Virus record (IMG/VR): IMGVR_UViG_3300030107_004466
Coordinates: 3,647 to 34,572 of that record
Direction: 5' to 3' (one strand)
DNA: 30,926 bases
Source of the DNA: a virus
Shown: positions 18,643-22,340 of the stretch, one piece after another
Layout of the letters: the number at the start of each line of letters is the position of its first letter
Numbering within the stretch: position 1 is the first letter of the stretch
Notes under the pieces: model-generated
The model's input: the letters and a program-made list of their open reading frames with translations, nothing else
Told to the model about the DNA's origin: nothing
The model's database searches: none
Translations under genes and position numbers: made by a program

Positions 18643-18772
18643 CCATTTTCCTTTTCATGTGTTTTCTCCACCAGAGATCTAACCGATGGAAATCGTGTAT
18701 TACAAACCAGGTCCGTATCATTTCTCCAGATGTATAATCTGTATGTAGCAACCAATCTCTAACCCATCTCAT
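18617..18772 (-). CDS. Small basic hypothetical protein (51 aa)
   Basis: The frame is open to 18817, but the ATG at 18772 overlaps the stop of the SEC-C gene (ATGA), so I choose it. The product is rich in Trp, Arg and His (MRWVRDWLLHTDY; FHRLDLWWRKHMKRK). It overlaps the DUF1599 gene by 26 bases. The Trp/Arg richness might serve nucleic acid binding. Weak call, because overlap with both neighbours could mean it is a non-translated frame. Confidence 0.4.
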   Translation of the reverse strand: MRWVRDWLLHTDYTSGEMIRTWFVIHDFHRLDLWWRKHMKRKMDARYNENS

Positions 18773-19056
18773 TTTAAACAGCATCGTTTGTATTTCTTCT
18801 GTGAACCGCAAAAGCATTCTTGATTCCTGCCCACCAACTTTTTGGCTTGTTCTGTTGTGATGGTGAATGGGTTCTTTTTATATTTTCTGATAAATCCACC
18901 GTATCCACCTTCTTTTCTGATGAGCCTTGTCTTGATGCTAACTTGGCCTGAAGTCTCCTGATGTTTCTTCTGCGTACCCATTCTGAATTGGGATACTTCT
19001 TCTTGTGGTGTTTTGTCTTTGGCATTACTCATCTCCTTCGCCATATTCATTATCAT
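18769..19056 (-). CDS. SEC-C motif protein (95 aa, start uncertain)
   Basis: The C-terminus carries a clear SEC-C zinc motif (GRNQECFCGSQKKYKRCC) with the C-x-C-x(8)-C-C arrangement found in SecA and many small DNA- or protein-binding proteins. The preceding region is Gly/Lys-rich (KEGGYGGFIRKYKKNPF). Start choice is unclear. ATGs at 19056, 19044 and 19032 are all in frame, and none has a well-spaced ribosome binding site. A second frame (18774-19025) begins at a TAATG junction with a good site, and may compete or be linked by frameshifting. The motif shows this frame is coding. The molecular partner is unknown. Confidence 0.7.
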   Translation of the reverse strand: MIMNMAKEMSNAKDKTPQEEVSQFRMGTQKKHQETSGQVSIKTRLIRKEGGYGGFIRKYKKNPFTITTEQAKKLVGRNQECFCGSQKKYKRCCLK

Positions 19057-19937: not shown

Positions 19938-20425
19938 GGTAGATCCTCTTGCTCTTCTTCTTCATCAGGCTCTGTTCTATCAAAAGGACAATCATTTCCG
20001 CTATTATCTTCAAGTAACTGCACGGCATCTAGGTACATGGATATGTATTTCTTTCCATTGACATCTGTTTGCTTTGCAACAAATCTGACATTAACAACAT
20101 CACCAAAGTCAGGCACTTCTGCTATTTTTTCCTGTTTACCATTCCATATCTCAGGAAATGTTGTTTTATCTCTATATAGAGTTGACTTGAATGTCTGTTG
20201 CTCTCCGTATGTGTCATGTATCTTATTCCCAGAAAGTTCTCTTGTTTTGCCGAATTCTGTTTTGATCTTCGACAAGGTAGCTTTAAAAGTTCCTTCCACG
20301 CTCACAGTGATATTGTGATTTCCTTGTTTATCGAATTGAGTATCCAATGATGCAAGGTGTGAAAAGACAACTGGCACTGGTCCAGTTTTGAATACCTTTT
20401 TCATGGGCTTTGCTTTAGCTGCCAT
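19931..20425 (-). CDS. Single-stranded DNA-binding protein-like
   Basis: The 164 residues end in an acidic tail finishing EEEEQEDLPF, matching the conserved C-terminal hook (DIPF/DLPF) of SSB proteins that recruits partners. The body has beta-strand-rich segments (ITVSVEGTFKATLSKIKTEF, VVNVRFVAKQ) and aromatic residues consistent with an OB fold, as in the T7 gp2.5-type group. It coats single-stranded DNA during replication and recombination and would work with the helicase and exonuclease. A good AAGGAGTC site precedes the ATG. The next gene (Hjc-like) begins inside its last codons. Confidence 0.85.
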   Translation of the reverse strand: MAAKAKPMKKVFKTGPVPVVFSHLASLDTQFDKQGNHNITVSVEGTFKATLSKIKTEFGKTRELSGNKIHDTYGEQQTFKSTLYRDKTTFPEIWNGKQEKIAEVPDFGDVVNVRFVAKQTDVNGKKYISMYLDAVQLLEDNSGNDCPFDRTEPDEEEEQEDLPF

Positions 20426-20434
20426 ATTGACTCC

Positions 20435-20539
20435 TTATTGTATGTGTATTATTGAATTTATTGTTACCATTGCAAATAGTAACGATAGCATTATGATGAC
20501 CGCATTCTTCCATATTATATATGCAAGTGATCTAATCAA
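20435..20539 (-). CDS. Possible tiny membrane peptide (34 aa), TTG start
   Basis: A TTG at 20539 overlaps the previous gene's stop and opens 34 codons ending TAA at 20435-20437. The product has one hydrophobic span (NAVIIMLSLLFAMVTI, 12-27). It fits the pattern of tiny membrane frames elsewhere in the window and the packing of this operon. The start codon is weak and there is no clear ribosome binding site, so confidence is low. Confidence 0.3.
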   Translation of the reverse strand: MIRSLAYIIWKNAVIIMLSLLFAMVTINSIIHIQ

Positions 20540-20747
20540 TTATCTCATACTCCAGACCATATTGTTCGCATTTTTTAACGACAATGGTCTTTATAAAATC
20601 TTGGCCATCAGCATCAAGTGATCTCACACCAAAAGATGCTCCACCTTTATTATATATATCATATTCATTTCGTTCGATCAATGATGATATCAATTTCTTA
20701 ATATGATACATCGAATGTTTTTCATTTGGTCTAATGATCAATTTCAT
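20532..20747 (-). CDS. Hypothetical protein (71 aa), first gene of the replication operon
   Basis: The 71-residue product (starts MKLIIRPNEKHSMYHIKKLI) has a basic N-terminal half and alternating beta/helix character, with a short Gly-Gly-Ala-Ser-Phe turn. No family is recognised. The ATG at 20747 directly abuts the 3' arm of a strong hairpin (20748-20794), and the expected ribosome binding site is absent, so translation may be controlled by that structure. Its stop is overlapped by a possible TTG-started tiny frame. Confidence 0.55.
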   Translation of the reverse strand: MKLIIRPNEKHSMYHIKKLISSLIERNEYDIYNKGGASFGVRSLDADGQDFIKTIVVKKCEQYGLEYEIID

Positions 20748-20934
20748 GAGGGGGAAAGGATTTTGGTTTGGATAGAACGGGATCTTTCCCCCTCTGATGC
20801 GGAGTTCCCAAAGGATTGTAGTTGTAGGCGGGAACTCTTAGGGAGCAATCTGCCAGATGGCAGAATCGATAAATGATCTGAATGCAAATTTTGTTGTCCT
20901 TTGGCTATGTGGTAGCATTTTTAAAATTCTTTTA
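20748..20934. other. Structured intergenic element: three hairpins and a possible pseudoknot
   Basis: This is a gene-free gap. Hairpin 1 has an 11-base perfect stem (20748-20758 / 20784-20794) with a 25-base loop. Hairpin 2 has an 8-base perfect stem GAGTTCCC / GGGAACTC (20802-20809 / 20830-20837) with a 20-base loop. Hairpin 3 has TCTGCC / GGCAGA (20849-20854 / 20859-20864) with an AGAT loop. AAAGGATT occurs at the start of both large loops (20755, 20810). CCAAAGGA (20808-20815) is complementary to TCCTTTGG (20897-20904), permitting a pseudoknot or switch. The plus strand ends in a weak GCTA/TAGC hairpin with T-rich sequence. It could be a leader of the leftward operon, a plus-strand small RNA, or an integration-related site. 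Confidence 0.65.
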
Positions 20935-21126
20935 TTAATTATTGAATAGATCTGTATATCTAACCTTCAAAGCATCCGCACACTTATTCTTATAAAGAAG
21001 GCTAAAATTCCTCTTACCATATATCATTTTATGCATATATGCCCTGGTTATATCGAGTTGTCTAGCAAGCCATGCGATGGATCGTTCTTGCGTTTTCAAT
21101 TCGTTCAGGAGTTCTTGGTTTTCCAT
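20935..21126 (-). CDS. Cro/XRE-type repressor-like protein (63 aa)
   Basis: The 63 residues hold a helix-turn-helix (SIAWLARQLDITRAYMHKMI, about 17-36) of the XRE/Cro type; the scaffold 'I-x-x-L-A-x-x-L-x-I-x-x-x-x-x-x-x-M' is present. It is divergent from the integrase gene and lies next to an operator-like palindrome, so it most likely controls lysogeny or early transcription. The length equals that of Cro-like repressors with a single DNA-binding domain. A TTGTTT / TATACT promoter lies upstream (21174-21203), and AAGG is the ribosome binding site. Confidence 0.75.
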   Translation of the reverse strand: MENQELLNELKTQERSIAWLARQLDITRAYMHKMIYGKRNFSLLYKNKCADALKVRYTDLFNN

Positions 21127-21173
21127 TTAAATACCTTTACATCTAATTAAATTTGTTATCAAAGTGTTGCCAG

Positions 21174-21203
21174 AGTATATTAATACCATCACTAAAAAAA
21201 CAA
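21174..21203 (-). promoter_or_regulatory. Candidate promoter of the repressor-like gene
   Basis: On the minus strand TTGTTT (21198-21203) and TATACT (21174-21179) are 18 bases apart, followed by a short leader to the ATG at 21126. TATACT matches consensus at five of six positions. Strength is uncertain. Confidence 0.4.
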
Positions 21204-21228
21204 CTATTATTTTATACTTGTCAACATA

Positions 21229-21257
21229 TTGTTACCTATTGTAACTTACGATAGTAA
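21229..21257 (+). promoter_or_regulatory. Candidate integrase promoter with overlapping operator palindrome
   Basis: On the plus strand TTGTTA (21229-21234) and TAGTAA (21252-21257) are spaced by 17 bases. The palindrome GTTAC-CTATT-GTAAC (21231-21245) overlaps the -35. This is the arrangement expected for repression of integrase by the divergent Cro/XRE protein. The ATG (21273) has AAAGG about 7 bases upstream. Confidence 0.4.
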
Positions 21258-21272
21258 TAAAAAGGTAATAAA

Positions 21273-22340
21273 ATGGCATACATAGAACCACATCCAACCG
21301 ACAAGAAAAAGCATCGTATCAGATGGTATGATCACCAGAATGGTGTCCGTGCCTGTGAGACATTCATAGGTACTAAAAAAGAAGCTGAAAAGGAGTGTCA
21401 ATATTGGACACGAAAGGAACAAGAGATAAAGAATGGGTTCCTTCCAGGTCGTGTGAATATGGTTGCAACACTTGGTGTTTTGGAAGAATGGTTCTTTAAT
21501 ATAGGATTAAGGTGGAAGAATGACCATCGTGAAGAACCTATTGATGAAAAGACAATATATTTGTATAAAAAATCCCTCAAACAATTCATAGATGTTTTTG
21601 GAAAAGATTGCCTTGTTAGTGCTATATCATCTGCCAAATACAGAGAATATTTTCCTAATAGAAAATTAAATGGTCTCAATGTGGATATTAGAGCAATGAT
21701 CACCATTATCAATACTGCTATCAGACATAAGAATAAATTGATCACGGAAATGCCAACAGACCTATTCACATATAATATAAAGCACAAGACACCATTCTTT
21801 TTAGAATTTGATCAGGTCAATAAGATATTATCATTGGATATGGATGAGTATTATCAGAAAAAGCCTTGGGATTTTGATAGGGATGAGACAATGAAGATAT
21901 TCATGCTTTATTTGTTCACAGGATGCCGTTTAAATGAACTTTTATCACTTACTTGGGACAATGTTAACTTCGAGGAAAATAGCATCGTAGTGACAGGAAA
22001 AAGAAAAAAGGTTCGTAAGATATTTGTGACCAATACCACGATGGAAATATTAGCATCACTAAAGGATAGGGAAAGGCCAATGCCCTATAGTCCTCATAAA
22101 GTAAAGACCAGATTAGATGATATCAATGAGTTCTCTGGAATAAAATTCACCACACATAATCTTAGGTCTACTTGTGGTTCATTCATGCTATCCGCAGGAT
22201 GTTCCATAGAAGAGGTATCAGAACATCTAGGACATGAGGATATTCAGACCACTAGAAAGTGGTATGCTAGGATCATAGAGGATAAGAGAAAGGATGCTAC
22301 AAAAAAGATGGAGAAATTGACACTTGGTCTGTCTATTTAG
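21273..22340 (+). CDS. int: Tyrosine integrase
   Basis: The 355 residues show the catalytic set R219 (TGCRLNELL), the beta-hairpin lysine area (TGKRKKVRK), H295-x-x-R298 (THNLRS), H321 (LGHED) and the nucleophile Y331 (RKWYARI). The N-terminal SAM-like arm/core-binding region is present (about 60-170). It catalyses site-specific integration and excision, marking the phage as temperate. It is on the strand opposite to both neighbours; its stop overlaps the stop of the tail gene (22337-22340). No excisionase gene was recognised; the XRE-like gene could play that role. No attachment core could be recognised. Confidence 0.94.
   Translation: MAYIEPHPTDKKKHRIRWYDHQNGVRACETFIGTKKEAEKECQYWTRKEQEIKNGFLPGRVNMVATLGVLEEWFFNIGLRWKNDHREEPIDEKTIYLYKKSLKQFIDVFGKDCLVSAISSAKYREYFPNRKLNGLNVDIRAMITIINTAIRHKNKLITEMPTDLFTYNIKHKTPFFLEFDQVNKILSLDMDEYYQKKPWDFDRDETMKIFMLYLFTGCRLNELLSLTWDNVNFEENSIVVTGKRKKVRKIFVTNTTMEILASLKDRERPMPYSPHKVKTRLDDINEFSGIKFTTHNLRSTCGSFMLSAGCSIEEVSEHLGHEDIQTTRKWYARIIEDKRKDATKKMEKLTLGLSI

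What the first reader, a model, noticed from the sequence alone, without database searches (positions are those of the whole stretch)
20748..20934. Undescribed structured intergenic element between repressor and replication operon
A gap of about 190 bases contains three hairpins, two of them with long perfect stems (11 and 8 bases). The same octamer AAAGGATT opens both large loops, and CCAAAGGA (20808-20815) is complementary to TCCTTTGG (20897-20904), a pairing that would form a pseudoknot or compete with hairpin 2. The leftward gene start at 20747 abuts the first hairpin and lacks a ribosome binding site. The region is clearly more G+C rich and structured than its surroundings. It could be a riboregulator of the replication operon, a phage small RNA, or a recombination site near the integrase. 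I know of no RNA family with this form.
Basis: partly seen in the sequence, partly recalled or inferred. Interest (0 to 1): 0.65.

Follow-up and report, generated by a model that had tools for sequence, protein, structure and literature searches.

The report
Conserved two-hairpin RNA before phage gene
In an apparently temperate phage known only from environmental DNA, the RNA just upstream of a small early gene folds into two hairpins that nine related phages keep in place and eight keep in detail, and it probably controls when that gene is translated; the RNA motif appears undescribed, although control of this general sort is familiar.

Summary
The hairpins are real, but the element is smaller than stated, lies on the other strand and is not a pseudoknot. 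Eight phages (window plus seven relatives) share a ~100-nt two-hairpin element on the MINUS strand, window 20748-20845, between a Cro-like gene and a 71-aa gene. Of 20 base pairs, 12 show compensatory changes; 96.9% of pair cells are intact; no shuffle (0/500) reaches this. A covariance model built without the window finds it at 82.8 bits, E=1e-18. A ninth phage has two hairpins there, but without the invariant loop. Hairpin 3 and the proposed pseudoknot fall in the remnant of an upstream ORF and are not conserved. No Rfam family matches.

Best-supported mechanism (moderate confidence): a cis-acting translational gate. The second hairpin ends at or within a few nt of an AUG that has no Shine-Dalgarno. 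In all eight, one frame runs stop-free through the element and ends in the overlap A-UGA, yet its amino acids are not conserved. So ribosomes probably read through the hairpins and restart at the AUG, as in phage f1 VII-IX. The loop CAACUACA is almost invariant and may bind a factor. Rivals: antitermination (put/nut-like) or protein-binding leader. A new, small RNA family of a known kind.

The parts
20748..20845 (-). conserved two-hairpin RNA element (operon mRNA, immediately 5' of the 71-aa gene)
   Evidence: covariance model R1 from 5 relatives: window 82.8 bits, E=1e-18; 12 of 20 pairs with compensatory change
   Evidence: 3 of 8 pairs with changes on both sides, 96.9% cells paired
20817..20824 (-). 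almost invariant single-stranded loop motif CAACUACA of hairpin A
   Evidence: identical in all 8 aligned phages of A9/A6; predicted unpaired with p near 1 in nearly all; absent in L035
20795..20801 (-). linker CGCAUCA; part of it can pair with the UG of the AUG in some members
   Evidence: alignment; base-pair probabilities
   Evidence: 9 of 12 pairs with changes on both sides
20532..20747 (-). 71-aa downstream gene, ferredoxin-like beta-alpha-beta-beta-alpha-beta fold, AUG flush with hairpin B, no Shine-Dalgarno
   Evidence: homologues in all 9 phages
20935..21126 (-). 63-aa Cro-like HTH gene, upstream gene of the same operon
   Evidence: conserved in all 9 phages; weak match to HTH_26, E=0.003, below its cut-off
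20744..20887 (-). candidate leader ORF (frame B, possible UUG start) through the element, ending A-UGA over the AUG of the 71-aa gene
   Evidence: frame open in 8 of 8 phages; no amino-acid selection
20897..20902 (-).
   Evidence: sequence; inferred, window only
20838..20918 (-). 26-codon remnant (MLPHSQRTTKFAFRSFIDSAIWQIAP*) of a ~61-aa excisionase-like ORF that is intact in L014 and L035; contains hairpin 3

Best explanation
A cis-acting, two-hairpin element in the polycistronic leftward mRNA of a temperate-type phage family, working as a translational gate for the 71-aa gene. Shown: conserved, covarying hairpins A and B; hairpin B ends 0-1 nt (5-6 nt in L014) before an AUG without a Shine-Dalgarno; one frame is open through the element in 8 of 8 phages and ends at UGA overlapping that AUG (AUGA). 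Inferred: ribosomes cannot start at the AUG on their own because hairpin B and the missing SD block it. A ribosome that has translated the Cro-like gene (and the leader ORF or excisionase gene after it) opens the hairpins, terminates at the overlapping UGA and restarts at the AUG. Expression of the 71-aa protein is thereby tied to translation of the regulator gene. The almost invariant loop CAACUACA of hairpin A is probably a contact site (ribosome or protein) that tunes this.
For: Structure: 12 of 20 pairs with compensatory changes, 0/500 shuffles, and slid controls far lower; the model recovers window, L031 and L014, none of them in its training set, at 82.8, 61.1 and 48.2 bits. Strand: internal G-U pairs 5 to 0 for minus. 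Translation: worst SD of 35 genes and weak in all relatives (-3.0 to +2.9); U and G of the AUG are mostly paired in window, L013, L034 and L014. The leader frame is stop-free in 8 of 8, with element lengths 95, 98 and 101 all equal modulo 3, always ending A-TGA. In L007, L008, L009, L013, L031 and L034 it starts at an ATG/GTG overlapping the HTH stop. There is no amino-acid selection in that frame (syn/nonsyn 35/161, like the other frames; HTH 26/12), so the act of translation, not the peptide, would matter. Precedent: f1 VII-IX, -4 overlap with a long hairpin ending just before the gene IX start (PMC12548453).
Against: In the window the leader ORF needs a UUG start, and in L014 an AUG inside the excisionase gene. 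Open frames of this length are not rare by chance (0.13-0.41 per sequence), and the sequences are related. The near-invariant loop is not required by plain coupling. L035 has a terminator-like hairpin B and no such loop or frame. There are no transcript or ribosome-profiling data, and the host is unknown.
Confidence: 0.45

Rival explanations
1. A transcription-level element: a cis-acting antitermination or attenuation signal (put/nut-like) after the cro-like gene. Hairpin A (conserved loop) is recognised by RNA polymerase or a factor, and hairpin B is, or was, a terminator.
For: Position right after a Cro-like gene at the head of the early operon, like nutR/putR; putRNA is a ~70-nt pair of stem-loops (PMC9378689). 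In L035 hairpin B is a proper terminator-like site, stem plus TTTTTATTAT, and L031 has a TTTT after its stem.
Against: Only one copy per record, whereas HK022 has putL and putR. Most members have no U-tract and 22-27-nt loops in hairpin B; no terminator-like site in the window. It does not explain why hairpin B abuts the AUG or why the leader frame stays open.
Confidence: 0.22
2. A protein-binding leader: a phage or host protein (perhaps the 71-aa product itself, as in ribosomal-protein autoregulation) binds the CAACUACA loop and represses or activates the downstream genes.
For: The loop is almost invariant while the stems change; the 71-aa protein always follows the element and has a ferredoxin-like fold, pLDDT 94, an architecture shared by RRM-type RNA-binding proteins (general knowledge).
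Against: No RNA-binding family match. PDB fold matches are generic: Foldseek E over 0.07, Z at most 8.3 and mostly to designed proteins. No RNP-type signature was seen by eye.
Confidence: 0.22
3. A DNA site, such as attP for the neighbouring integrase or a replication-origin hairpin, rather than an RNA.
For: Integrase gene ~430 bp away on the other strand; inverted repeats; excisionase-like gene or remnant adjacent.
Against: Arms change sequence while keeping pairing, which a protein-bound DNA site would not readily tolerate; internal wobble pairs fit only the minus-strand RNA; no bacterial chromosome match was available for testing.
Confidence: 0.05
4. One reading: a 190-nt pseudoknotted riboregulator with three hairpins, or a plus-strand phage small RNA.
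For: All pairings exist in the window sequence.
Against: Hairpin 3 and the pseudoknot partner lie in a decayed ORF and are absent from every relative; no terminator on the plus strand.
Confidence: 0.03

Closest known systems
Phage f1 gene VII - gene IX translational coupling (Blumer et al. 1987, via review PMC12548453)
   Same: -4 overlap (AUGA) between upstream stop and downstream start; a long hairpin ends just upstream of the downstream AUG; poor independent initiation site.
   Different: Here there are two hairpins, the first with a nearly invariant loop; the upstream reading frame has no conserved peptide; the phage family is unrelated. Coupling itself has not been tested.
HK022 putL/putR antitermination RNA (PMC9378689)
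   Same: Two tandem stem-loops of similar total size in an early operon mRNA, after a cro-like gene.
   Different: One copy only; simple perfect stems; abuts a start codon; a conserved 8-nt loop instead of the put triplex and bulges; no shown effect on polymerase.
lambda nutR / tR1 arrangement
   Same: Position between cro-like gene and replication genes; in L035 a hairpin plus terminator-like hairpin.
   Different: No boxA was recognised by eye; hairpin A has a 20-nt loop, unlike boxB; no N-like gene identified.

Membership tests
any described RNA family (Rfam 15) | score above the gathering threshold | tested here: not met
   0 matches in the window; with relaxed E only chance-level snoRNA/miRNA matches
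f1 VII-IX type hairpin-gated translational coupling | upstream frame stops at or over the downstream start (-4 overlap) | tested here: met
   A-TGA junction in 8 of 8 phages
f1 VII-IX type hairpin-gated translational coupling | hairpin ending just upstream of the downstream AUG and lying inside the upstream frame | tested here: met
   0-1 nt in 7 of 8 and 5-6 nt in L014; inside open frame B in 8 of 8
f1 VII-IX type hairpin-gated translational coupling | weak independent initiation (no SD) | tested here: met
f1 VII-IX type hairpin-gated translational coupling | a usable start codon for the upstream frame | tested here: inconclusive
   ATG/GTG overlapping the HTH stop in six relatives; only UUG in the window and an internal ATG in L014
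f1 VII-IX type hairpin-gated translational coupling | downstream expression depends on upstream translation | not testable with these tools
   needs a reporter experiment
HK022 put RNA | two stem-loops of about 70 nt in the early transcript | tested here: met
   two hairpins, about 83-101 nt in all
HK022 put RNA | two copies, in both early operons | tested here: not met
   one match per record in 8 records, apart from one at E 1.3; records may be incomplete
HK022 put RNA | put sequence conservation and binding to the polymerase beta-prime zinc domain | not testable with these tools
   no put alignment at hand, no assay
intrinsic terminator | G+C hairpin with short loop followed by a U-tract | tested here: not met
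   none in window 20400-21400; met in relative L035 only
RRM RNA-binding protein (71-aa product) | RRM profile match | tested here: not met
   no RRM match in nine homologues up to E=5; the fold is ferredoxin-like, which alone does not decide

The most novel reading that the evidence does not exclude
The element is a new phage RNA switch: the almost invariant CAACUACA loop is the receptor for a phage or host factor that decides whether ribosomes (or polymerase) pass from the Cro-like regulator gene into the replication operon, adding an RNA checkpoint to the early lytic/lysogenic programme.
Probability: 0.25. Interest if true: 0.62.

Novelty: new member of a known kind. Interest (0 to 1): 0.42.

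Why it matters
It turns a by-eye observation into a covariation-supported RNA family at the head of the replication operon of a group of environmental, apparently temperate phages whose early regulation is unstudied. It gives a precise test case for hairpin-gated coupling (a leader frame kept open without a conserved peptide) and a defined loop for finding a binding partner. The mechanism class is familiar, so the surprise for a specialist is moderate.

Tried and rejected
1) The 17-mer pattern scan gave five loci, L002-L006, at about the number expected by chance; none matched the covariance model. 2) L017 from the degenerate scan is a chance match inside a GC-rich coding gene. 3) blastn of the region against isolate phages: no match; tblastn with the ssb, the 71-aa and the HTH proteins: no match. 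4) Prophage or host search with the HTH alignment in bacterial genomes gave only short, weak Bacteroidales HTH matches and no element. 5) Coding hypothesis: that the element simply encodes a conserved peptide in frame B. Rejected because substitutions are flat over codon positions and nonsynonymous changes are as frequent as in the other frames. 6) +1 frameshifting from the excisionase ORF into frame B at CCC-UAA (window) or CCU-UAG (L014): possible, but six relatives do not need it, so not adopted. 7) SD in the 5' arm of hairpin B with a UUG in its loop: seen in L013, L031 and L034 only. 8) A second copy of the element in the same phage: none. 9) PDB fold searches for the 71-aa protein: only generic ferredoxin-like matches. 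The absence of a family there is not evidence against one.

Full report
What is in the sequence. Both strands fold better than dinucleotide shuffles, the minus strand more so (z -3.17 against -2.39). The region lies in a 34.6-kb virus record. On the leftward (minus) strand the order is a 63-aa Cro-like HTH gene (20935-21126), this region, a 71-aa gene (20532-20747) and, further on, an ssDNA-binding protein, an exonuclease and a primase/helicase. A phage integrase gene lies divergently at 21273-22340.

Relatives. Scans with the integrase, the ssDNA-binding protein, the 71-aa protein and the HTH protein gave eight related loci with the same synteny: L007, L008, L009, L013, L014 (with its near-identical sister contig L018), L031, L034 and L035. 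Two scans by DNA pattern alone returned no true match outside this group. So the element travels with this operon in this phage group and was not found elsewhere in the viral collection at that sensitivity.

The conserved element. Aligned in the minus orientation, a ~100-nt block is shared, from CTCC..TAA to the ATG of the 71-aa gene (window 20845-20748). I built a covariance model from five gap-free relatives, without the window. It finds the window copy at 82.8 bits (E 1e-18), L031 at 61.1 and L014 at 48.2; L035 is marginal at 16.0. There is one copy per phage record (a second hit in one record has E 1.3). On the resulting alignment 96.9% of pair cells are standard pairs. Twelve of the 20 pairs have changes on both sides. 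No shuffle of 500 reaches the observed values, except for the number of pair types. Sliding the partners by one to three columns drops paired cells to 43-68% and double changes to 0-4 pairs. RNAalifold on its own predicts the same two helices. The alignment was fitted to this structure, so the counts lean towards it. But the five training sequences were aligned without gaps or structure, and they already show compensated changes such as GATGGGG/CCCCATC, GACAGGG/CCCTGTC and GATAGGG/CCCTATC. The longer stem therefore does not depend on the fitting.

What is not conserved. Hairpin 3 and the far half of the proposed pseudoknot lie in 20838-20918. In the window this stretch reads MLPHSQRTTKFAFRSFIDSAIWQIAP*, a remnant of a ~61-aa ORF that is intact in L014 (MSDYWIPFSALPKYTGHSRTWCQRLLIHTKGLKIKVANPKSNRTTKLVLKSSLDDAIWQTTP*) and in L035. 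Its position before the operon's DNA genes and beside the integrase suggests an excisionase, but no family matched. In the other relatives the ORF is gone, and with it hairpin 3 and the pseudoknot partner.

Which strand. Pairs that are G-U on the minus-strand RNA occur six times, and pairs that would be G-U only on the plus strand occur twice. Looking only inside helices, the ratio is five to none. The count is small, so I treat it as support and not as proof. It agrees with the co-oriented genes on both sides, with the stem ending at the AUG, and with relative L035, where the second hairpin is followed by TTTTTATTAT on the same strand and scores as an intrinsic terminator.

The start codon. 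The second hairpin ends 0-1 nt before the AUG in seven of eight phages and 5-6 nt before it in L014. The gene has no Shine-Dalgarno. Its duplex with the anti-SD is +2.2 kcal/mol, the worst of 35 window genes, and the homologues give -3.0 to +2.9. In several members the U and G of the AUG are themselves predicted to be paired with the linker.

The open frame. In all eight phages with the full element, one frame is stop-free through it and ends at a UGA overlapping the AUG (A-UGA). The element lengths (95, 98, 101) are all equal modulo 3. In six relatives this frame begins at an ATG or GTG overlapping the HTH stop codon. In the window it could begin at a UUG (20887) nine bases after AAAGGA, and in L014 at an ATG inside the excisionase ORF. 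Yet substitutions are spread evenly over the codon positions of this frame, and nonsynonymous changes are as frequent as in the other two frames, unlike the neighbouring HTH gene. An open frame of this length is not rare by chance in one sequence (0.13-0.41), and the sequences are related. The joint pattern is suggestive, not decisive.

Interpretation. These facts fit translational coupling: ribosomes pass through the hairpins, stop at the UGA and restart at the AUG that is otherwise closed. The closest published arrangement is f1 gene VII-IX, with a -4 overlap and a long hairpin ending just before the gene IX start (review PMC12548453). What this does not explain is the almost invariant loop CAACUACA. 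It suggests a contact with the ribosome, polymerase or a protein. The 71-aa product is predicted with high confidence as a ferredoxin-like beta-alpha-beta-beta-alpha-beta fold, but no fold or family match makes it an RNA-binding protein. The position after a cro-like gene and the two-stem form also recall HK022 put RNA (PMC9378689). Against membership stand the single copy and the fit to the start codon.

Verdict. The element is a real, small, so far undescribed RNA family of a familiar functional kind. That the two hairpins are conserved RNA structure I hold at about 0.95; the translational-gate mechanism at about 0.45. The interest lies in the clear covariation, the near-invariant loop and the peptide-free open leader frame. 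It is limited by the narrow distribution (nine phages, no isolate) and the lack of any expression data.

Noticed in passing
window 18769-19056 and 18774-19025 (minus); L031 4721-4984 and 4728-4979; L034 4758-5012 and 4765-5007; L014 2338-2649 and 2343-2738: Two overlapping ORFs in different frames, both recognisably kept in relatives: one starts MPKTKHHKKKYPNSEWVRRRNIR, the other ends with a SEC-C-like CFCGSxKKYKxCC motif. Possibly one gene read through a programmed frameshift, or a dual-coding pair.
   Followed up: no
window 20838-20918 (minus): Decayed remnant of a ~61-aa excisionase-like ORF that is intact in L014 and L035 and lost in the other relatives.
   Followed up: partly
window 21201-21226 (minus), upstream of the HTH gene: TTGACAAGTATAAAATAATAGTTG is largely conserved in relatives between the HTH and integrase genes; likely a promoter or operator.
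   Followed up: no
window 1028, 20817, 28221, 29277 (minus): The loop motif CAACTACA occurs four times, all on the minus strand, against 1.1 expected; the other three copies lie within the leftward structural-gene regions.
   Followed up: no
L035 3408-3447: At the place of hairpin B this relative has an intrinsic-terminator-like site right before the 71-aa homologue; its first hairpin has a different loop.
   Followed up: partly
window 20532-20747 (minus): The best viral structure match of the 71-aa protein is A0A1B1IVT8 (53% identity, TM 0.95), an unnamed viral protein, so a named record of this group may exist.
   Followed up: no
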